From NCBI GenBank assembly GCA_946530965.1, contig CAMNAK010000001.1, positions 248,001-312,000 on the forward strand: DNA of 64,000 nucleotides. Reading direction: 5' to 3'. The DNA comes from an uncultured Candidatus Saccharibacteria bacterium. Lineage in GTDB: Bacteria > Patescibacteriota > Saccharimonadia > Saccharimonadales > Saccharimonadaceae. Under the pieces are notes generated by a model. The model saw nothing but the letters and a program-made list of their open reading frames with translations. It had not been told where the DNA came from and did not search any database. Position 1 is the stretch's first letter. Each line of letters opens with the position of its first letter. The position numbers and the translations under genes were made by a program. Positions 11,301 to 51,532 of this stretch are shown piece after piece.

Positions 11301-11403
11301 CGTGATAATCGCGTTCGATTTCTTCGCCAGGTCGATAGCTATAACCCTGGTTTTGCAGGGTCTCAATGATCATTCTTTCTAATGCTTCTTCATTAAAGTT
11401 CAT
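8374..11403 (-). CDS. hsdR: Type I restriction enzyme, R subunit
   Basis: This 1009-residue protein has the full HsdR layout. The N-terminal PD-(D/E)XK nuclease reads RPDIIIFINGMPLVVMELKS (about residues 132-151). A SF2 translocase follows with Walker A QGSGKSF (about 285), the DEAH box IADEAHRSHYG (about 385), FTGTPI and the later QAIARTNR motif. The C-terminus is helical and would contact the methylase core. HsdR cuts unmodified DNA after ATP-driven translocation. Its start overlaps the upstream small gene by 4 nt (ATGA), which indicates translational coupling. Confidence 0.96.
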   Translation of the reverse strand: MNFNEEALERMIIETLQNQGYSYRPGEEIERDYHDVLLLSHLENSLSRLNPDLQENTITEAIRKIKNLDQNNLIRNNQEFSRMLHEGVKVPEHTDRGTEYKTVKLIDYDNIDNNEFLVVNQFTIIEHSEKRPDIIIFINGMPLVVMELKSATRDEEDTTPEAAYNQLNNYKKVHIPSLFYYNQILIASDGVSAKAGTITCKWERFSDWKKASTDDNPENLNTLEPMIHGMLDRKTLLDLIGNFILYQEDAKILPAYHQYYGVKKAIERTLTTEDGRIGIFWHTQGSGKSFSMVFYAGNMIKLLKNPTIVVVTDRNDLDDQLYGTFAKCSDYLRQKPEHVDSRKDLIDRLENKQVGGIIFTTLQKFEEETGLLSNRDDIIVIADEAHRSHYGIDPTTKLDMEKMIAVEKYGTAKYLHDALPNAKYVGFTGTPIENKDHSTSNVFGDIIDVYDMTQAIDDGATVPITYEARMAKVGLNDKILQEIDAYYDTIEAEGLADEEKIYRSKQMMTRISQVIEDPDRLEMIVRDILAHYESRKDLVANKAMIVAYSRNSGYTMYKKILELRPDLKNKVYMVMTPSNKDTEEMALAIGSKNDKRDRERLFKDPNSEFVIVIVVDMWLTGFDVPCLGTMYVDKPMKAHNLMQAIARTNRVYKDKTGGLIVDYIGLKKWLMEALSTYTKRDQGKIVDTDQVIKVLRDKIELIRALLHGFDYSNYDNLDNLGKYQMLNKAANFILKSEDIKKRFMRHSRDVKNLYTISTGSVTYEDRWESLFIISVRSFINKLTFIDGKLDVTEINRDVAQMLQQAIQDDELIQIGKIKHGKALSMLSDQMLQRLATMENKNIAAEILRKALKQYIDEIAKTNYVKAQKFSERFKKIVDLYNNRTMVTDIEKIIEDMIALKQDVEKDIDRTNNYNLSTEEIAFFDALGDDPEVKELMKDETLVKIAKELVDTVNNNLTVDCFIKRSSQAHMRMEIKRLLIKYNYPPNKSAKAVETVVKQAELKYNERNES

Positions 11404-12101
11404 CGATTGCCTTTCTTTTTAAACTTTTCCAAGAATGTTTTATCCAAACGGATAAGATCTTCTACGCTATTCATGATTGATTTATCATTTGATAGTCTCT
11501 TTTCGGCTTCCTCTATTTTCTTGTATATTTTCCCAAACGAATAAAAATCACCTACAGCTCTTAAATCTTCGTCGCTCTCTACGGATAGTTTATAATCAAG
11601 CAGAGTAAGTAAATAGTCTCGATAGGAGGCTAAAAACAACTTTACGTATTTTATATCTTTCCCATTACGGAATAGCGGTTCAAGCTGGATGATCGCCTCA
11701 TCTAAATCATCTATGTACTCAGTTGCGATTTTTTCAACATTTGAATTTGTAATTTTTTCAAATAGGTACTTCTTGGCAATAACCACCTTATGCCCAGTCA
11801 TTAAATATAGTAGCGGCGTAGATTGTTCAACGAGGCCTTCGAGAAAATCATTTTCATTATCCCCACAAAACATCATTTTTTTACTACGAGCATAATTATC
11901 TAATGTCTTGCGCAGCAATGTATATACTTTTATTCTTTTATCAAATAAGTTTTGCTTATTCTGTATTTTTATGGAATATCTGGTCATAAGAATTGCAACG
12001 ACCGCTACTATGGCGCTAGCTATTCCAGCTATCGCCATAGCTTTTTCCCAGCCAGTTGGCTGTTGTATTGCCTCGGTTATTTTCTGGAGACCTTCTTCCA
12101 T
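11400..12101 (-). CDS. Hypothetical membrane protein embedded in the type I RM operon
   Basis: This 233-residue protein has one transmembrane helix (about residues 22-41) and a long helical, charged cytoplasmic part. No family is recognised. It lies between hsdS (2 nt away) and hsdR (4-nt overlap), so its expression is tied to the restriction subunits. Insertions between hsdS and hsdR are often defence accessories or immunity modulators, but nothing in this sequence proves such a role. Confidence 0.7.
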   Translation of the reverse strand: MEEGLQKITEAIQQPTGWEKAMAIAGIASAIVAVVAILMTRYSIKIQNKQNLFDKRIKVYTLLRKTLDNYARSKKMMFCGDNENDFLEGLVEQSTPLLYLMTGHKVVIAKKYLFEKITNSNVEKIATEYIDDLDEAIIQLEPLFRNGKDIKYVKLFLASYRDYLLTLLDYKLSVESDEDLRAVGDFYSFGKIYKKIEEAEKRLSNDKSIMNSVEDLIRLDKTFLEKFKKKGNR

Positions 12102-12103
12102 AA

Positions 12104-13321
12104 TTATATTTTGACCTTCTCTAAACTAATTTCGCCAGACATAAGTCTTGGAAGCAATGCATCTCGAATTGTTTCTAGTGCCGTATTTTCGTGCATAATA
12201 TTGTTTCTACGCTGAAGTGCCTTTTTAGCGATATCTACGAAACGATTTATTGCCGCATCGTCAGGCAAAACAAACTCATAGTTTTCGATAATGTCTTTCG
12301 GCAAGAATAAGACCGTAGTTCCGGTTGCACCACCGCCAGCAGCATCCGAAAAATCCTTTCTTAAGAGTAGATAGTACAAAAATAATGTAGGTATTTTTTC
12401 ACTTTTAATGCTGTAGATATGGTGAGAAAAGATAACATCGCCGTCATAAATGCTTGGAACGATAAGAGGCGTGCCTAAAACTTCTCGTTTTTGTGTCATA
12501 TCGGTATTTGCCATCACTAAATCACCTGCTTTTACTACAACTTTATTTTTGAATTCGCCAGTATAATATTTGTTTTTCTCCGATCTAAAAATTCCGCCAG
12601 GCATAATATTGCCCAAATTTATCATTGGGGTTCCCGAATCAGACAAAAACTGCCCTTTGTATGATAAGCCTCGATTAATTGTTACGAAATTACCGAGCTT
12701 TTCTTTTCTCCATTCACTTTGATCGCCATTGTAGTTTTTACGGATGAACCAGTCTTCAAAAATAGCATTTAGATTATTGTGGATTGTAAGGTCTAGCTGG
12801 TTATTTAATTCTATTTTTTGGTCGAGGGCGGAGAGGATGCGGACAATTTTTTTCTGAGTTTCTAAATCAGGCAAAATGACAGGCATATTCCGAAGGGTCT
12901 GTTCGTTAATGTTCCCACGAGTACTTCCAGTGATGGCACCACTAATCCAGTTGCGATACGTATTTGATATACAATAGTATTTCAAAAATCTAGGATGAAC
13001 TTTTGTCTCATCCGGAGTAAACTTAATTAAAAATCCTGCAAATACCATATTTGGTATCGTGCCTTCGTAGTAATATGATCTACCGGTACTAGCGCCAGTT
13101 CTTGCAAAAACAATATCCCCAGGGGACAATAGGTATTTTTCAGCATCGGGATCATTAAGCGATTTCAGGTCAGCTGTATTTAGCGTGCCATCATCATTTA
13201 TATCAGTGATGCGAAGATAGGTATATTTTGTTGTGCCATAGGGCTCCGCGCTGGCACCAATTCCGTATCGGCCCTTGCCGCCTATACATAGTTCGCCTAA
13301 TGTATGTTCGCTATATTCCAT
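12104..13321 (-). CDS. hsdS: Type I restriction enzyme, specificity subunit
   Basis: The 405-residue protein has two target-recognition domains, each followed by a helical spacer. The first ends with DLETQKKIVRILSALDQKIE (about residues 153-172) and the second ends near the C-terminus in DALLPRLMSGE. The two domains read the two halves of a bipartite DNA target. The gene overlaps the end of hsdM by 11 nt. Short near-duplicate segments flank each domain as usual for HsdS. No inverted spare hsdS fragment for phase switching is seen nearby. Confidence 0.93.
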   Translation of the reverse strand: MEYSEHTLGELCIGGKGRYGIGASAEPYGTTKYTYLRITDINDDGTLNTADLKSLNDPDAEKYLLSPGDIVFARTGASTGRSYYYEGTIPNMVFAGFLIKFTPDETKVHPRFLKYYCISNTYRNWISGAITGSTRGNINEQTLRNMPVILPDLETQKKIVRILSALDQKIELNNQLDLTIHNNLNAIFEDWFIRKNYNGDQSEWRKEKLGNFVTINRGLSYKGQFLSDSGTPMINLGNIMPGGIFRSEKNKYYTGEFKNKVVVKAGDLVMANTDMTQKREVLGTPLIVPSIYDGDVIFSHHIYSIKSEKIPTLFLYYLLLRKDFSDAAGGGATGTTVLFLPKDIIENYEFVLPDDAAINRFVDIAKKALQRRNNIMHENTALETIRDALLPRLMSGEISLEKVKI

Positions 13322-14807
13322 ACCCGATTTCGCCTAAAACTTCTTTAATTTCAGTGTCTAACTTAGCAGATTTTTTCATTTGTTCGGAAAGTTCAGAAGT
13401 TAGCCTTTTCATTTTTTCTTCAAATGGCTCGCCATCATCTTCGTCCTCTTTAAACCCAACATAGCGTCCTGGGGTTAGAACACAATCATTTGCCTTGATA
13501 TCATCAAGCGTTGCTTTCTTGCAGAATCCTGCAACGTCTTCATAGCCATCATTGCTTGCGTGTGCGTGGTATGTCTCGGCAATTTTTGTAATATCATCAT
13601 CAGAAAGCTCGCGTAGTTTGCGAGTTACCATCGTACCCATGTCATTGGCATTAATAAACAACGTGCAGCCTTTTTGCTTCTTGTTGCGGTTCAAAATCCA
13701 AATCGAGCACGGCACGGTAACGGTATAGAAAAGGTTTGCCGGCATAGAAAGAATGCAGTCTACCAAATCCGCCTCGATAAGTTTTTTACGAATTTCGGCT
13801 TCTTGGCCACTAGCAGAGAGCGAGCCATTTGCTAGAATGATTGCTGCTTTGCCGTTTTGGCTAAGCTTCGAAACCATGTGCTCAATCCAGGCATAGTTCG
13901 CGTTACCTTTTGGAGGCGTACCGTATTCCCAACGATAATCGTTAAGTAGTTTTTCTTGACCCCAATCGCTTAGATTGAAAGGCGGATTAGCCATGACAAA
14001 ATCAGCTTTGAGATCTTTGTGGAGATCTTCTGTAAAAGTATCGGCCGCAAATTTGCCAAGATTACCATCAATAGAGCGGATAGCTAGGTTCATTTTTGCT
14101 AGCTTCCAGGTTGTAGGATTCTTCTCTTGGCCGTAAATCGATAGGTTATGGACATTACCCTGGTGCTGCTGAATAAACTTCAAAGACTGCACAAACATAC
14201 CGCCCGAACCGCAGGCCGGATCATATACACGACCTTCGTACGGCTCAAGGATCTCAACCATAGTACGGACTAGGCAGGCAGGAGTGTAGAATTCGCCACC
14301 CTTCTGCAACTCATGTGCGGCAAACTCGCCAAGGAAGTATTCATAGATACGACCAAGCAGATCCTTCTCGACTGCTTCTTTGGTGCCGACTTTGATATTG
14401 GTAAAGAGGTCGATGATTTCGCCAAGGTTAACATTGCGATTGTCCGGATCGTTGTAGACCTTAAAAAGCACGCCTTTGAGCGAAGCGTTTTCGTTCTCGA
14501 TATCATCCATCGCCTTATCAAGAATCTCGCCAATATTATAGTCTTTAGCGTGTTCAACCAAGTATTGCCAGCGTGCCGTTTCTGGCACCCAGAAGACATT
14601 GGACTCAATATATGCATCGCGATCTTCCTCGAAGCCAAGCCCTTCTGCTTTAAGCTGCTGATAACGCTCCTCGAACGAATCAGAGATGTACTTGAGAAAA
14701 ATAATCCCAAGCACGATAAATTTATACTGTGAAACCGGGATACCGCCAATCATCTTATCGGCAGCAGCCCAGAGAGTCTTTTCTAGATCCTTGATATTAC
14801 TACTCAA
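13311..14807 (-). CDS. hsdM: Type I restriction enzyme, M subunit (N6-adenine methylase)
   Basis: The 498-residue protein has the helical HsdM N-terminus, the SAM-binding motif DPACGSGGMF (about residue 197) and the catalytic NPPF motif (MANPPFNLSDW, about 275). With HsdS it methylates adenine at the target, and with HsdR it forms the restriction complex. The start codon is TTG, supported by GGAGG 8-9 nt upstream, and a TATAAT box lies near 14850 on the minus strand. It is the first gene of the five-gene operon. Confidence 0.95.
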   Translation of the reverse strand: MSSNIKDLEKTLWAAADKMIGGIPVSQYKFIVLGIIFLKYISDSFEERYQQLKAEGLGFEEDRDAYIESNVFWVPETARWQYLVEHAKDYNIGEILDKAMDDIENENASLKGVLFKVYNDPDNRNVNLGEIIDLFTNIKVGTKEAVEKDLLGRIYEYFLGEFAAHELQKGGEFYTPACLVRTMVEILEPYEGRVYDPACGSGGMFVQSLKFIQQHQGNVHNLSIYGQEKNPTTWKLAKMNLAIRSIDGNLGKFAADTFTEDLHKDLKADFVMANPPFNLSDWGQEKLLNDYRWEYGTPPKGNANYAWIEHMVSKLSQNGKAAIILANGSLSASGQEAEIRKKLIEADLVDCILSMPANLFYTVTVPCSIWILNRNKKQKGCTLFINANDMGTMVTRKLRELSDDDITKIAETYHAHASNDGYEDVAGFCKKATLDDIKANDCVLTPGRYVGFKEDEDDGEPFEEKMKRLTSELSEQMKKSAKLDTEIKEVLGEIGYGI

Positions 14808-14880
14808 AACCAGTCCTCCACAACAATTCGTATTACCTGTATTTACAAAAATTATACCACGCCGTTCCCAATACTTTAGC

Positions 14881-14908
14881 TTGCAAATTTACGCAAACAT
14901 TATATAAT
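14881..14908 (+). promoter_or_regulatory. Promoter of the 14918 gene
   Basis: TTGCAA (14881-14886) and TATAAT (14903-14908) are spaced by 16 nt. The ATG follows 9 nt after the -10 box, so the leader would be at most a few bases. The hsdM promoter diverges from the same region. Confidence 0.65.
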
Positions 14909-14917
14909 ATTCTTAAT

Positions 14918-15691
14918 ATGGCGACCAGGAAAGCAGCTGTAGAGATTATGATGTTCAAAGATTCGGATGCGGCTATTTTTGATACCGTAGTAAAACAGCG
15001 TAACGAGAATTACGGCGAAGAACCCTTTATATACAGCATCAAAAAAGGTCTAGAGGCCTTAAAGAAAAGCGGAAAAGCCGACGAGCTAGGAATTGGCATA
15101 GATCAAATTCGAGACTCAATTCACAGCATGGCCAACAATAGAATTCTTAATGCCGACTGGATAGTCGAAAGAAAATGTCTTGATCCAAGGACATATAAAT
15201 TCGCTTTTCATGACCCGTGCTATATGTACAACACATACTGCGGCGAAACAGTCACCGATAGCGAAGAAGAGGAAGAAGACCGGATTTTTATAGATGTTAC
15301 TTATAAGCGCATAAAAGATATTAGAGATAATTGCATTCCGAAATATCAATGCGCCCTAACGTACGACGATACAGAAAAACGCTTCGTCGTAAAATGCAAG
15401 GAGCTCGGCGTCGCTTACATTATCAAAAGAATAAACTACGGCGCACAGGCAGCCGAGGTGCTACGCATCGCATTAGCCGAAAGTCCAAATCCAGTTACTA
15501 GGGGCGATCTTAAGAAAAAAGATATCAATGTAATGAAAATTTCGATTGCTACAAGAGTTTTCGACGACAATAGCGTGGCCAGAAACGAGCTTAAGTCTTT
15601 CGTGAAGCTAACAAGCAGTAGCATTACTGTTCATTCTGTAGCAGTGCTCACTCTTGCCCAGATAAGAGCAATCGCAAAAGCAAGTTTCTAG
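14918..15691 (+). CDS. Hypothetical element-encoded protein
   Basis: This 257-residue protein is not recognised. It has a helical N-terminus, an acidic patch (EEEEED, about residue 118), and a C-terminal part from about residue 180 (AAEVLRIALAESPNPVTRGDL) that resembles a winged-helix segment. It is divergent from hsdM and upstream of the replication module. A DNA-binding regulator of the element is one possibility, but the resemblance is weak. Confidence 0.6.
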   Translation: MATRKAAVEIMMFKDSDAAIFDTVVKQRNENYGEEPFIYSIKKGLEALKKSGKADELGIGIDQIRDSIHSMANNRILNADWIVERKCLDPRTYKFAFHDPCYMYNTYCGETVTDSEEEEEDRIFIDVTYKRIKDIRDNCIPKYQCALTYDDTEKRFVVKCKELGVAYIIKRINYGAQAAEVLRIALAESPNPVTRGDLKKKDINVMKISIATRVFDDNSVARNELKSFVKLTSSSITVHSVAVLTLAQIRAIAKASF

Positions 15692-15810
15692 GCTGAATTT
15701 CGGTTAAAACCTAGCTATATTTCTGTCGCTAAAGATAATGGCGACAAATTTTTTATGGATTTTTACGGCTAGCATATTAACTAAACTAGGCAATTGCTAA
15801 GATTGCGCGT

Positions 15811-15862
15811 AGGAAAGCAGACAGGGCTGCTGGACAAATAGCTTTCCTGGTCAAGCGGCCCT
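15811..15862 (+). promoter_or_regulatory. Interlaced inverted repeats (pseudoknot candidate) before the replication genes
   Basis: AGGAAAGC (15811-15818) pairs with GCTTTCCT (15841-15848). AGGGCTGCT (15823-15831) pairs with AGCGGCCCT (15854-15862, one G-U). The second stem opens inside the first and closes outside it, which is an H-type pseudoknot with short loops (4, 9 and 5 nt). The AGGAG ribosome site follows 8 nt later, so the structure could control translation of the small gene and the coupled primase. Confidence 0.55.
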
Positions 15863-15886
15863 CCGTAAACAGGAGAAGATTAGCAT

Positions 15887-16045
15887 ATGCGAATCTCCAC
15901 ATCGCTCATTGAGGCATATCAAAACCTCTACGAGCAACGCTTCTGTCAAAGCATAACCACTAGCGAGGCAGAGCATCAACTATTAGATTTAGTGGAATTA
16001 GTTCGGCTAATTACCGAAAGAAAGAAGAATTACTATGCTAAATAG
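15887..16045 (+). CDS. Small hypothetical protein translationally coupled to the primase
   Basis: This 52-codon ORF has AGGAG 11 nt upstream and overlaps the primase start by 11 nt (its last four codons contain the primase ATG). The product is helical and charged. Such small upstream genes often set translation of a replication protein. The function of the peptide itself is unknown. It follows the interlaced repeats at 15811. Confidence 0.6.
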   Translation: MRISTSLIEAYQNLYEQRFCQSITTSEAEHQLLDLVELVRLITERKKNYYAK

Positions 16046-18245
16046 CCATGATCACTTAGACGAAGGCGAGTTTATTGAATACCTTGCCCAAAACAGAATT
16101 ACGGATATTGAACGCAAGACTAACAGCAAAGGCGAAACAGAAATCTACTTCCCATGCCCATTCAATGGATGTGACGACGATCGGCGTCGCGGCGAAGAGG
16201 GGCACTGTTCGTACAATCTGGACAAAGGTGTCTATAACTGTTTTAAATGCAAAGAAAAAGGCAACTTCGTTACACTACAAAAGCATTTCGGCGACTATCA
16301 AGCAAAGACAGTCACGCAGGCTCCAAAGAAGAAAAAACGCGAAGCGTCACTAGATACTATCACGCGGAAAGCGTTCGAACGAGACCCAGAATATGTCAAG
16401 AAGTACTTCAATGCTCGCGGGATCAACGACGATAGTATCAGGAAGTATAAGCTCGGTATCGGAGAATTCTATGGACACAAAATGTTCGTAATTCCAATCA
16501 ACGACAGAAATGGAAATATTGCCTATCTGAAACTTCGCAGGACGCCTGAAGACGAACGGATTGCGGATGCTATGCAGAAAGACAGCGTAGTGCAGAAATA
16601 TATGAAATATCCGACAGGGTCAGAGACGTTGCTTGTTGGAGAAGATGAATTAGTCAAAAGCTCGTCAAGCGACGTTTTGATTTGCGAAGGCGAGCTAGAT
16701 CGCATTACTGCAATCCAGAACGGGGTAAAGATGCCTGTGGTGTCGGGTGGAGGCGGAGCTCAGACCTTTAAAGACGAGTGGCTCGATTCATTGCGGAGTA
16801 TGAGAAATATATACATCTGTATGGATCGCGATAAAACGGGCGAAAGCGGCGTAGGTAAGCTAGCTCAACGAATCGCAGAGCGAATTCCAAATGCGTCAGT
16901 TTTCAAAATCGCATTGCCATATCCAGAAGATTCAAAGGCAGACCTCTCGAACTATTTCGAAGACGAAAAAGGTACTACCGATGAATTGTTTAGCAAATAT
17001 GCCGAGTTTTATGCTGGAGCACAACCGATCGATGCGAGCAAATTTAAAGAGCTGACTGTGAATGATATTGCCGATATTCTTGATCTCACAATCAAGAAAA
17101 ACCGCATCAACAAGGTAATTACCTTTTTAGCAATGCTTCTCGCTTACACAGAAGATTCCCAGCTCAACGTCATGTTTAATGCACAAAGTTCTTCCGGTAA
17201 AACCTATATTACAACAGAAGTATCAAACTACTTCCCACAACAGGACGTAAAAGTCTACGGCAGGACGAGCAAAACGGCTTTCTATTACAACGAAAGCCTA
17301 ATGAAAACCGACGAAAAAGGCAGGCCTTTTATCGACCTCGAACGTCGAATCCTCGTGTTCGCCGAGCAGCCTGACATGCAGTTGTTGGAAAATTTAAGAT
17401 CGTTCCTGTCTCATGACATGAAGATGACCCCGTACATTATCACCAACAAAAGCAAAAACGGCAGGAATACAGCCAGAGAAAGTTATCTTCGCGGCTTCTC
17501 GACCGTACTATTCTGTTCGGCAAATCTCAGAATTGATGAGCAAGAACAAACTCGCTGCCTGCTACTTAGCCCTGAGAGCACAGAGGAAACCGTTCGTGCC
17601 GGCGTAGACCTAAGCATATCTCGCAATAGTGACAAGAAAGCCTATATTGAGCAACTCAATAGCAACGAGAATCGCAGGCAGCTGATGGATCGCATTCTTT
17701 ACATCAAAAGCCTAAACGTCGACCAAATCGACATCGATGATAGCGATTATCTCAGGAAACGCTTCTACGAGAAAAGACGTTCGGTACCTCCACGCACGCA
17801 ACGCGAAATCGGACACTTTATTTCTTTGGTCAAAGGCTTGGCACTAGTAAATGCGCCTTTCCGTACCAAGAATGGCAAAATCATCGCGAGCAACAAAGAT
17901 ATAGACGAAGCAATGAAACTATGGGCGGGCATTAGCGAGAGTATGTTCTATGGTGTCCCACCTCAGGCTTTGGACTACTACAAGAAATACATCTTGCCGG
18001 CTTACACCAAAGCAAACGAAGGTCGAGCCAAAAAGAAGGGTGTTACGTATGATCAGATTGCGGCGGAGTATTTCAAGCAAACCGGTAGCTATCCGAACCT
18101 CGACATGGTTCGCAAGATGATCATTCCAGCGCTCCAATGCGCGACACTAATCAGCTATGACAAGGACGAAGACGACAGGCGTCAAATGCTAGTCACTCCA
18201 CTTATCACGATTGGCGGCGAACTGGAAAAATCCGACGAAAAATAG
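16035..18245 (+). CDS. Primase/ATPase replication protein of the element
   Basis: The 736-residue protein starts with a primase-type zinc finger (CPFNGC at about 40, then GHCSYN and YNCFKCKEKGN to about 79). A Toprim domain follows (LICEGELDR near 217, CMDRDKTGE near 261). The C-terminal half is an ATPase with Walker A AQSSSGKTY (about 386), a Walker B-like ILVFAEQPD (about 437) and a sensor-like VLFCSAN (about 492). This resembles plasmid and phage primase-helicases that start replication of their own DNA. The presence of such a protein suggests that the excised circle can replicate. Confidence 0.85.
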   Translation: MLNSHDHLDEGEFIEYLAQNRITDIERKTNSKGETEIYFPCPFNGCDDDRRRGEEGHCSYNLDKGVYNCFKCKEKGNFVTLQKHFGDYQAKTVTQAPKKKKREASLDTITRKAFERDPEYVKKYFNARGINDDSIRKYKLGIGEFYGHKMFVIPINDRNGNIAYLKLRRTPEDERIADAMQKDSVVQKYMKYPTGSETLLVGEDELVKSSSSDVLICEGELDRITAIQNGVKMPVVSGGGGAQTFKDEWLDSLRSMRNIYICMDRDKTGESGVGKLAQRIAERIPNASVFKIALPYPEDSKADLSNYFEDEKGTTDELFSKYAEFYAGAQPIDASKFKELTVNDIADILDLTIKKNRINKVITFLAMLLAYTEDSQLNVMFNAQSSSGKTYITTEVSNYFPQQDVKVYGRTSKTAFYYNESLMKTDEKGRPFIDLERRILVFAEQPDMQLLENLRSFLSHDMKMTPYIITNKSKNGRNTARESYLRGFSTVLFCSANLRIDEQEQTRCLLLSPESTEETVRAGVDLSISRNSDKKAYIEQLNSNENRRQLMDRILYIKSLNVDQIDIDDSDYLRKRFYEKRRSVPPRTQREIGHFISLVKGLALVNAPFRTKNGKIIASNKDIDEAMKLWAGISESMFYGVPPQALDYYKKYILPAYTKANEGRAKKKGVTYDQIAAEYFKQTGSYPNLDMVRKMIIPALQCATLISYDKDEDDRRQMLVTPLITIGGELEKSDEK

Positions 18246-18257
18246 TAAAATATAAGT

Positions 18258-18363
18258 GTTCTCACTTCCAATATTAAACATAAAACCGCTATTATTTTCT
18301 GCCCAATCTAGGGTGCTGATGCGGAAAGGTTTTGTGCCTGGAAGTGAGAACAATCAGCACCCT
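18258..18363 (+). promoter_or_regulatory. Interlaced perfect inverted repeats with terminator upstream of the integrase
   Basis: A 13-nt arm (18258-18270, GTTCTCACTTCCA) is complementary to 18339-18351. An 11-nt arm (18310-18320, AGGGTGCTGAT) is complementary to 18353-18363, which is followed by a T tract. Both pairings are perfect and they interleave. The second alone is a Rho-independent terminator placed before the integrase start. The two stems could form a pseudoknot, or refolding could decide between termination and integrase expression. Confidence 0.65.
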
Positions 18364-18384
18364 TTTTGGTAAAGGAATAATAAT

Positions 18385-20055
18385 ATGAAATTCGATAATT
18401 TTAGCTACAAAGCAGTGTTATATGCACGCAAGTCTACTGAATCGGAAGACAAACAGGTTCAGTCGATTGATGACCAAATTCGAATAATGAAACAGGTCGC
18501 GAAGACTGAAGGCTTAAGAATCATCGACATCATCTACGAGGCAAAAAGCGCTAAAGCTCCAGGCAAGCGCCCTGTGTTTAAACAGATGATGCGTGATATT
18601 GAAGATGGCAAATATAACGTCATACTTGCATGGGATACAAGTCGCTTATCGCGCAACCCAAAAGACGGTGGCGACCTTCAGTGGCTCCTAAGTGAAGGCT
18701 CGCTACGCGGCATACGCACTCATGAAAAATGGTACCATGACGACGACGATCTACTATTCTCGATCGAAAATAGTATGAACGGACGATACATCAAAGAGCT
18801 TAGCGTAAAAGTAACGCGAGGAATGTCCTCAAAGGCAGATAAGGGCGACTATCCAGGATCAGCACCAGTAGGTTACCTAAATGACAGAATCAACCGCAAG
18901 ATTCTCAAAGATCCCGTAATGTTCGATCGCGTGGCAAAACTTTGGCAGTATGCCCTAACTGGCACATATTCCGTATCAGAACTTACAAGAATCGCAAAGA
19001 AGCTAGGAATTAAAACTCCGCAGCACAAGAGAAGGGGCGGAAATGACCTTTCGTACAATTGTGTGTTAAAGCTACTTCAAAGCCCTTTCTATGCAGGGAA
19101 ACTAAAATGGGGTAAGAAAATATATAATGGGAACCACCCCGCTATGGTTTCTGATGCGGAGTTCAAAAAGATGCAAAACATCTTACATCCCAACAAGCAC
19201 GCGAGCAGGCCAAAAACAAACCCACTAGATTTTATCCTCAGAGGATTGCTAACATGTTCTGAATGCGGTTATGCTATAGTCACCGAAAAGAAATACAAAA
19301 AGCTTAGCGACGGAACCACGAAAGAATACCGTTATTGTCATTGTTGCGGCAAAAATCGCAAACAGAAATGCAAATACAAAAAAATTTACGTTCGCGAAGA
19401 AGAGCTTCTTAGCCAAATCAAAAATGAATTATCAAAATATACCATCGACGAAGACTTCTATAAGCTAGCCATTGAAGCACTAATAGAAGAGGACGAGCTT
19501 GAGGTTTCTCAACAAAACCTAAAGATTTCAGAAATCAATGCTAGCATTGCTAAGAAGAAAACGGAGCTCGACGGACTAAGACGAGCTCTTTACACCGGTC
19601 TCATAACAGATCAGGGCTACTTTATAATCGAGCAAGAGAATCTCGAAAAGGAATTAGCACGCCTAGAAGAAGAGCGAAATAAAGTAGCAGATATAGCTAA
19701 AGACTGGAAAGAAATCGCAAATGACGTGTTCTTGTTTGCTAGATATGCAAAAGAAGATTTCGATTCCGACGATTGGGAACGCAAAAGGGCGGTCATTAAA
19801 AGGCTCGGTGCCAACCTGAAATTATCGGGTCGAACCATCGAATTCACCCCTGTTAAATACCTAGTTCCGATCGCCGAAAACCGCGATTCTCTAGAAGCTA
19901 AAAAAGAGGCGGCTCGAACCGCTCCCCAACAGATTAAAAAAGACCTCAAAGAGGACTTAATTGAAAAATGGTGGAGCACAGGAGATTCGAACTCCTCACC
20001 TCTTCCATGCCATGGAAGCGCTCTACCAAATGAGCTAGTGCCCCGAAATATGTAA
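18385..20055 (+). CDS. Large serine integrase (site-specific recombinase)
   Basis: The 556-residue protein has the resolvase catalytic domain (catalytic Ser17 in YARKSTES, then the arginine-rich active site), a recombinase domain (about 160-270), a zinc ribbon (TCSECGY near 290, CHCCGK and KCKYKK to about 330) and a coiled coil (about 360-460). Large serine integrases join attP and attB without host factors. The last 27 codons are an antisense reading of tRNA-Ala (WWSTGDSNSSPLPCHGSALP and on), so the present C-terminus was created by integration. The native tail is at 6739-6819. Confidence 0.93.
   Translation: MKFDNFSYKAVLYARKSTESEDKQVQSIDDQIRIMKQVAKTEGLRIIDIIYEAKSAKAPGKRPVFKQMMRDIEDGKYNVILAWDTSRLSRNPKDGGDLQWLLSEGSLRGIRTHEKWYHDDDDLLFSIENSMNGRYIKELSVKVTRGMSSKADKGDYPGSAPVGYLNDRINRKILKDPVMFDRVAKLWQYALTGTYSVSELTRIAKKLGIKTPQHKRRGGNDLSYNCVLKLLQSPFYAGKLKWGKKIYNGNHPAMVSDAEFKKMQNILHPNKHASRPKTNPLDFILRGLLTCSECGYAIVTEKKYKKLSDGTTKEYRYCHCCGKNRKQKCKYKKIYVREEELLSQIKNELSKYTIDEDFYKLAIEALIEEDELEVSQQNLKISEINASIAKKKTELDGLRRALYTGLITDQGYFIIEQENLEKELARLEEERNKVADIAKDWKEIANDVFLFARYAKEDFDSDDWERKRAVIKRLGANLKLSGRTIEFTPVKYLVPIAENRDSLEAKKEAARTAPQQIKKDLKEDLIEKWWSTGDSNSSPLPCHGSALPNELVPRNM
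19966..19975. repeat. Right attachment site (direct repeat AAATGGTGGA)
   Basis: An exact copy of 6730-6739. It covers the 3' end of tRNA-Ala including CCA, so the tRNA stays intact after integration. Confidence 0.75.
19969..20044 (-). tRNA. tRNA-Ala (anticodon GGC)
   Basis: The 76-nt gene folds as a cloverleaf: acceptor GGGGCAC with GTGCTCC, discriminator A, encoded CCA, and an anticodon stem CTTCC/GGAAG with loop ATGGCAT (anticodon GGC). It is the integration site of the element, and its 3' flank is now the integrase gene on the opposite strand. Confidence 0.95.
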
Positions 20056-42358: not shown

Positions 42359-42381
42359 TTGCATTTTGAAGTCCTATCTGT

Positions 42382-42495
42382 TATAATACTCCCAGTTACC
42401 AAAGACAGCGGCGGCTGAGCAATCAGCTTAATCACGCCGCCGAGGATAAATATTCTTATATATTCTTGGTGACGCGCTATATCTAGCGCTTTTTA
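42382..42495 (+). promoter_or_regulatory. Ribosomal protein L10 leader with attenuator
   Basis: TATAAT (42382-42387) precedes an L10-leader-like RNA: AGTTACCAAAGACAG followed by a CGGCGGC/GCCGCCG stem (42409-42442). A terminator hairpin (GCGCTA/TAGCGC plus T5, 42474-42494) lies between the leader and rplJ. In other bacteria L10-L12 binds such leaders and represses its own operon. Confidence 0.85.
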
Positions 42496-42556
42496 AGTGC
42501 TAAATAGCAATTAACAATCTGGCTAAAACGAATAAACCAAAAGGAGATTTCTATCT

Positions 42557-51181: not shown

Positions 51182-51236
51182 AAAAAAATAGCTCTTATTT
51201 AAGAAAAGAACATCTTAAATAAAGAGCTATTTTTTA
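51182..51236 (+). terminator. Long terminator after ybaB
   Basis: AAAAATAGCTCTT with ATTTAAG pair with CTTAAAT and AAAGAGCTATTTTT over more than 20 bp, with a 10-nt loop and a T run. Confidence 0.9.
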
Positions 51237-51284
51237 TTCTTCATAAATCCTAGATTTCTAGAGGGCCTTTATTATTTGCGCAGG

Positions 51285-51347
51285 TTGGACTAGTTTGACA
51301 AGTTTGACTAGCTTGACAGGTTGGACTAGCTTGACAAGTTTGACTAG
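51285..51347. repeat. Tandem array of seven 9-bp units
   Basis: Seven consecutive 9-mers of the type TTTGACTAG (variants TTGGACTAG, TTTGACAAG, CTTGACAGG, CTTGACAAG) fill 63 bp with no spacers. TTGGACTAG recurs after 36 bp, giving a higher-order period of four units. The array is framed by GCGCAGGTT on the left and AACCTGCGC-like sequence (51359-51367) on the right. It is non-coding by frame: one frame hits TAG in several units and no start codon exists. Confidence 0.85.
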
Positions 51348-51480
51348 TTAACCTGTCAAACCTGCGCGCCGCCAGAATTCTAATGATTAATTTATGCTTT
51401 CCGAGCTCTGTTTGTTTTTTGCTACGGATTAATTAGCTTTTGCTTTTTATACATAATATGAACTTAGCTATACGATCTGC

Positions 51481-51532
51481 GATTCTATAGCTTTCGATAG
51501 TTTGTTCTTTAACTAGAGAAAGCTATAGAATC
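51481..51532. repeat. Perfect 15-bp inverted repeat at the recR promoter
   Basis: GATTCTATAGCTTTC (51481-51495) is the exact reverse complement of 51518-51532. The loop carries a shorter TAGTT/AACTA pair. It ends 7 nt before the TATAAT box of recR and covers the -35 region. Confidence 0.8.

What the first reader, a model, noticed from the sequence alone, without database searches (positions are those of the whole stretch)
18258..18363. Interlaced perfect repeats form a switch-like leader before the integrase
Two perfect inverted repeats (13 bp and 11 bp) interleave so that each stem's loop contains one arm of the other. The second stem followed by T5 is a terminator placed before the integrase start. 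The layout fits either a pseudoknot or a terminator/antiterminator choice. Perfect pairing over 24 bp in a short leader is unlikely by chance.
Basis: seen in the sequence. Interest (0 to 1): 0.7.

Follow-up and report, generated by a model that had tools for sequence, protein, structure and literature searches.

The report
Pseudoknot RNA leader before bacterial integrases
The short stretch before this integrase gene encodes a knotted RNA ending in what looks like a stop signal for transcription; the same RNA sits before serine recombinase genes in many Patescibacteria but is in no RNA database searched, and it probably keeps the DNA-integrating enzyme turned down.

Summary
P1 (14 bp, not 13; 18257-18270/18339-18352) and P4 (11 bp; 18310-18320/18353-18363) interleave, with U5 and then the start of a large serine recombinase (LSR). 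It is the only such pair in the 64 kb; 40 shuffles gave none. Relatives reveal two inner stems, P2 and P3. All four helices show compensatory changes, so this is a pseudoknotted RNA. Covariance-model scans found it across the phylum: 51 of 53 genome-wide hits lie directly before an LSR, one of them decayed. A -10 box lies 5-7 nt before P1 in nearly all, so the transcript should start at the P1 base and end at the U-run. LSRs lacking it nest among LSRs that have it. Rfam has no such family; no paper was found.

Best explanation: a cis-acting attenuator whose terminator stem is the pseudoknot helix. P1 and P4 share no base, so they are not a terminator/antiterminator pair. A weakly supported hairpin, P5, competes with P3 and P4 and could be the other state. 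Probable relatives before membrane-protein genes favour cis-regulation over a recombinase cofactor RNA. Termination, sensing and ligand are untested.

The parts
18223..18251 (+). Promoter: -35-like TGGAAA (18223-18228), 17 nt spacer, -10 TAAAAT (18246-18251); predicted start at about 18257
   Evidence: Consensus scan; in 48 of 49 relatives a -10 box (at least 5 of 6 of TATAAT) lies just before P1, in 46 of them 5-7 nt away
18257..18270 (+). P1 5' arm (14 bp)
   Evidence: covariation
18279..18287 (+). P2 5' arm (9 bp)
   Evidence: covariation
18296..18302 (+). P3 5' arm (7 bp)
   Evidence: covariation
18299..18304 (+). P5 5' arm (competing hairpin, excludes P3 and P4; 5 of 6 pairs in the window)
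   Evidence: modest:
18310..18320 (+). P4 5' arm (11 bp pseudoknot helix); 18311-18316 is also the P5 3' arm
18321..18327 (+). P3 3' arm
18328..18336 (+). P2 3' arm
18339..18352 (+). P1 3' arm
18353..18363 (+). P4 3' arm, terminator-like stem
18363..18367 (+). U-run; predicted 3' end of the short transcript
   Evidence: sequence; U-rich tract kept in nearly all relatives
18371..18376 (+). Shine-Dalgarno-like AAAGGA, outside the structure
   Evidence: sequence
18385..20055 (+). Large serine recombinase (integrase) gene
   Evidence: Pfam Resolvase, Recombinase, Zn_ribbon_recom

Best explanation
It is the DNA of a cis-acting leader RNA of about 110 nt that folds while it is being made. Transcription starts at the base of P1. 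The RNA forms P1, P2 and either P3 or the competing hairpin P5. When the last arm emerges it pairs with the apical loop to form P4, giving a compact pseudoknot in which P1 stacks on P4 and P2+P3 (16 bp) lie back along P1 (14 bp). P4 directly before the U-run acts as the stem of an intrinsic terminator, so most transcripts end before the integrase gene and the integrase is made at low level from read-through. P5 blocks the P4 5' arm and would be the read-through state if something stabilises it. Shown: the four helices, their covariation, the fixed place between -10 box, U-run and recombinase gene, and the co-inheritance with the recombinase. Inferred: transcription start, termination, low expression, any regulation through P5, and the three-dimensional arrangement. 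What is sensed, if anything, is unknown.
For: Covariation in all helices: 92.9% of cells paired, 20 pairs with two-sided changes against 9.0 in shuffles on 8 sequences; nested helices on 56 sequences 92.9% against 56.1% shuffled; P4 core 97.3% against 87.6%, 0/500; partner swap lowers the P4 score from 32.8 to 19.9. Fixed anatomy: -10 box 5-7 nt before P1 and a U-rich tract after P4 (mean 5.06 T in 8). Place: 51 of 53 hits from genome-wide model scans precede a serine recombinase, one of them decayed. LSRs without the RNA are nested among those with it. The ribosome binding site is outside the structure and the distance to the start codon varies from 7 to 45 nt, which points to transcription rather than translation. 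Probable relatives precede membrane-protein genes with U5-7 tracts and, in most, an extra local terminator hairpin.
Against: No expression or termination data. The U-run is only 3 nt in several relatives and lost in two (L014, L086). P5 covariation is modest (86.6% against 84.9%, 12/500) and one of two partner-swap tests is not significant (153/2000). A terminator with a 32 nt loop that contains other helices is unusual. The membrane-gene relatives score weakly with the model.
Confidence: 0.6

Rival explanations
1. Passive element: a constitutive pseudoknotted terminator, sealed at both ends, that only limits integrase expression or protects the transcript, without sensing or switching.
For: Terminator form and sealed ends; P5 evidence is modest.
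Against: A plain terminator would not need P1-P3 and the conserved apical sequence, kept across the phylum. P5-compatible bases are kept in the loop, where P3 and P4 do not constrain them.
Confidence: 0.2
2. The short RNA is a trans-acting product or a cofactor of the recombinase (binding it or guiding it), and the terminator simply makes its 3' end.
For: Near-exclusive and old association with the recombinase gene; discrete predicted ends.
Against: Almost all bases are paired, leaving no long variable loop that could serve as a guide. Always directly upstream on the same strand. Some related recombinases lack it. Probable relatives occur before unrelated genes. Studied large serine recombinases work without RNA (general knowledge).
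Confidence: 0.12
3. The pseudoknot acts on translation or stability of the integrase mRNA rather than on termination.
For: In the window P4 ends about 20 nt before the start codon; some relatives have weak U-runs.
Against: The Shine-Dalgarno site is not in the structure and the spacing to the start varies from 7 to 45 nt; a U-rich tract is kept in nearly all.
Confidence: 0.05
4. The repeats are a DNA operator or attachment site bound by the integrase.
For: Integrase autoregulation at the promoter is known for tRNA-associated prophage integrases (PMC2951348).
Against: Many kept G-U pairs and changes that preserve RNA pairing; nested-plus-knotted layout; the tRNA gene at the likely attachment end is 1.6 kb away, at the 3' end of the integrase gene.
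Confidence: 0.03

Closest known systems
HMP-PP riboswitch (thiS motif; PMC6478431)
   Same: Small leader RNA in which a possible pseudoknot and an intrinsic terminator are merged, with mutually exclusive states
   Different: There the knot belongs to the read-through state; here the knot helix is itself the terminator-like stem. Different genes, larger RNA, no known ligand, not a match in Rfam
L10 leader-type transcription attenuators (RF00557; also PMC4538822)
   Same: Cis-acting leader with a terminator-like stem before the regulated gene
   Different: Regulated by a ribosomal protein; no Rfam match of our RNA; pseudoknot here
Autoregulated prophage integrase promoters (intS of KplE1; PMC2951348)
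   Same: Keeps integrase expression low next to a tRNA-linked integrase gene
   Different: Works by proteins binding DNA at attL over the promoter, tyrosine recombinase; no RNA
IS110-type bridge RNA (general knowledge)
   Same: Structured RNA encoded next to a mobile-element recombinase gene
   Different: Different enzyme family; no guide-like single-stranded loops here; terminator-like 3' end directly before the gene

Membership tests
Intrinsic (Rho-independent) terminator | G+C-rich stem directly followed by a U-run | tested here: met
   P4 11-17 bp in 49 of 50 relatives examined, the other with one mismatch; mean 5.06 T in the 8 nt after it, weak in a few
Intrinsic (Rho-independent) terminator | Short hairpin loop (about 3-8 nt) | tested here: not met
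   32 nt in the window, containing arms of P1-P3; the plain consensus scan does not list it
Intrinsic (Rho-independent) terminator | Transcription ends there | not testable with these tools
   No expression data
Pseudoknotted structured RNA | Crossing helices supported by compensatory changes | tested here: met
Terminator/antiterminator attenuator | Two mutually exclusive helices sharing bases | tested here: inconclusive
   P1 and P4 do not share bases; P5 excludes P3 and P4 but its covariation is modest
Riboswitch | Ligand-binding aptamer controlling the downstream gene | not testable with these tools
   No binding data; gene context is recombinases and membrane proteins, not metabolism
Any Rfam 15 family | Match to the family's covariance model | tested here: not met
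   No match to the RNA in the window up to E 10, none over the RNA in 16 relatives; in 7 further loci only weak microRNA-family matches far below cut-off overlap it
IS110-type bridge RNA | Partner is an IS110 (DEDD) recombinase; target- and donor-binding loops | tested here: not met
   Partner is a serine recombinase; no long variable unpaired loop
Type III toxin-antitoxin RNA | Tandem pseudoknot repeats before a terminator and a toxin gene | tested here: not met
   Single unit in the window; downstream gene is a recombinase

The most novel reading that the evidence does not exclude
A new phylum-wide class of switch RNA in Patescibacteria that senses a cell signal, a metabolite or the recombinase itself, and uses a pseudoknot as the terminator stem (with P5 as the read-through state) to decide when mobile elements make their integrase; a sister variant controls membrane-protein genes.
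Probability: 0.3. Interest if true: 0.85.

Novelty: new variant of a known kind. Interest (0 to 1): 0.62.

Why it matters
Little is known about how Patescibacteria control their mobile DNA, and no RNA control of large serine recombinases turned up in the searches made here. This gives a defined, widespread RNA with clear test mutations. If the pseudoknot helix itself terminates transcription, it is also an unusual terminator design.

Tried and rejected
Terminator versus antiterminator made of the two reported stems: rejected, they share no base and both covary. DNA operator or attachment site: disfavoured by kept G-U pairs and by geometry. Known families: Rfam gave nothing credible over the RNA. 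Phage, plasmid and viral collections: three exact patterns, one protein scan and two blastn searches gave no real relative; the one viral pattern match (L099) is chance inside a coding sequence. DNA-similarity hits L004 and L005 are short chance matches inside genes. A duplicate of the tRNA end elsewhere in the window: none found; a remnant of a recombinase 3' end was found elsewhere in the genome instead. Weak model hits L108 and L110 lack the leader features and were discarded. Literature searches found no description; a 2017 catalogue of RNA motifs that I tried to check is not held.

Full report
Observation. The sequence holds a perfect 14 bp inverted repeat (18257-18270/18339-18352) and a perfect 11 bp one (18310-18320/18353-18363), interleaved, with T5 at 18363-18367 and an ATG at 18385. 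Only the arm length of the first (13 in the finding) needs correction. No other interleaved pair of perfect repeats (arms at least 10) exists in the 64 kb, and 40 dinucleotide shuffles gave none.

Anatomy. Inside the first repeat (P1) the strand can form P2 (18279-18287/18328-18336) and P3 (18296-18302/18321-18327); the second repeat (P4) pairs the P3 loop with the bases directly after P1 (and comparison with relatives). On the 3' side the order is P4 5' arm, P3, P2, 2 nt, P1, P4 3' arm, with no other linker. P2+P3 make 16 bp beside 14 bp of P1, so P1 can stack on P4 while P2/P3 fold back along P1 and all four helices can exist together. This three-dimensional statement is inference.

Relatives. 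The window lies in a 1 Mb genome whose nearest named relatives are Candidatus Saccharibacteria. The downstream gene is a large serine recombinase (Pfam Resolvase, Recombinase, Zn_ribbon_recom). DNA and protein searches of 394 family genomes gave seven close leaders beside the window's own and several distant ones, all at the same place before a recombinase. On these eight sequences 92.9% of cells are paired, with 20 pairs changed on both sides against 9.0 in shuffles; P1 97.3%, P2 84.3%, P3 85.7%, P4 98.8%.

Spread. A covariance model (R1) and a broader one (R2) were run through whole genomes without reference to neighbouring genes: 15 of 394 family genomes (R1), 38 of 393 class genomes (R2) and 18 of 362 phylum genomes, 12 of them outside the class. 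Of the 53 hits of the two R2 scans, 50 are followed by a serine recombinase frame on the same strand, one (L075) by a decayed one, and two (L094, L095) by other genes. Two further weak hits, L109 and L111, also precede recombinases. On 56 aligned sequences the nested helices have 92.9% paired against 56.1% shuffled and a covariation score of 0.862 against 0.196; the core of P4 has 97.3% against 87.6%. Alignment A7 was fitted to the nested structure but not to P4, so the P4 result is the less biased one; swapping P4 partners between sequences drops the score from 32.8 to 19.9. Slid controls are far lower in every case. At one P4 position G-U is the commonest pair (33 of 56), which a DNA palindrome would not keep.

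Ends of the RNA. In 48 of 49 relatives with enough upstream sequence a -10 box matching TATAAT at 5 or 6 bases lies just before P1, in 46 of them 5-7 nt away; in the window it is TAAAAT, 5 nt away. This puts the predicted start of transcription at the first base of P1. P4 is followed by a U-rich tract (mean 5.06 T in 8); runs of 4-5 are typical, 3 in several, and two relatives (L014, L086) have lost it. The ribosome binding site lies outside the structure.

Co-inheritance. In a maximum-likelihood tree of 56 recombinases the five that lack the RNA are nested among the 51 that have it; three changes suffice, which fits an old association with losses. The sample of recombinases without the RNA is small, because several of those fetched could not be extracted for the tree.

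Competing state. The 3' part of the P3 5' arm plus the next bases (window 18299-18304) can pair with the P4 5' arm (18311-18316). This hairpin, P5, excludes P3 and P4. It is predicted just before the last arm is made in 38 of 50 relatives, and replacing it by P3 costs a median of 7.3 kcal/mol against -22 for P4 (the knot penalty of 9 kcal/mol used there is a guess). In the window itself P5 has 5 of 6 pairs, and at that last step P3 is predicted instead. The statistics are modest: 86.6% paired against 84.9% (12/500), covariation 2/500; a partner-swap test is met for energy (0/300) but not for pairing score (153/2000). I therefore treat the switch as plausible, not shown.

Other contexts. L094, L095, L113, L114 and L115 carry leaders with the same order of P1, P4 and a U5-7 tract, with a clear -10 box in three of them, before genes of small membrane or exported proteins with no Pfam family above cut-off. 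Model scores are weak (5e-4 and 2e-3 per genome for the first two; 0.018 to 0.38 within the loci of the other three with filters off), so kinship is probable rather than proven. In most of them a local hairpin (such as GACAGCC/GGCUGUC) also precedes the U-run and shares bases with P1 and P4, which is a plain terminator design. This favours cis-regulation.

Known or new. No Rfam family gives a credible match and no paper found describes it; the held library is incomplete. The nearest functional likeness is the HMP-PP riboswitch, in which pseudoknot and terminator are also merged but oppose each other. I call it a new variant of a known kind: a pseudoknotted attenuator leader, with serine recombinases as the unusual gene context.

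Limits. Only Patescibacteria could be searched with the model. There are no expression data. Hits are one genome per species and partly from incomplete assemblies. The 16 sequences in model R2 match it by construction, although most were recovered by location-blind scans.

Noticed in passing
L094:1505-1630, L095:1588-1712, L113:1500-1619 (-), L114:1416-1540, L115:1479-1612 (-): Probable sister leaders before small membrane or exported protein genes instead of recombinases, most with an extra local terminator hairpin that shares bases with P1 and P4.
   Followed up: partly
window 19969-20055: The recombinase frame runs antisense through the whole tRNA-Ala gene before its stop, so integration seems to have changed its C-terminus; no second copy of the tRNA end was found in the window.
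   Followed up: partly
G000:C1:454163-454332 (L056, L100): Remnant of a second recombinase 3' end near a tRNA-Leu gene, 94% identical over 63 bases to the end before tRNA-Ala in the window: a decayed element.
   Followed up: partly
L075:1500-2100: A decayed serine recombinase (early stop and a frame break) still carries a well-paired leader RNA.
   Followed up: no
window 11400-18245: Genes upstream of the leader look like a type I restriction-modification set by reading and a Toprim primase-like protein (Pfam Toprim_2), probably cargo and replication genes of the same element.
   Followed up: no
window 42381-42504: Ribosomal protein L10 leader (RF00557, 53.4 bits).
   Followed up: no
window 51183-51532: Two long perfect inverted repeats (14 and 15 bp arms) within 350 bases of each other.
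   Followed up: no
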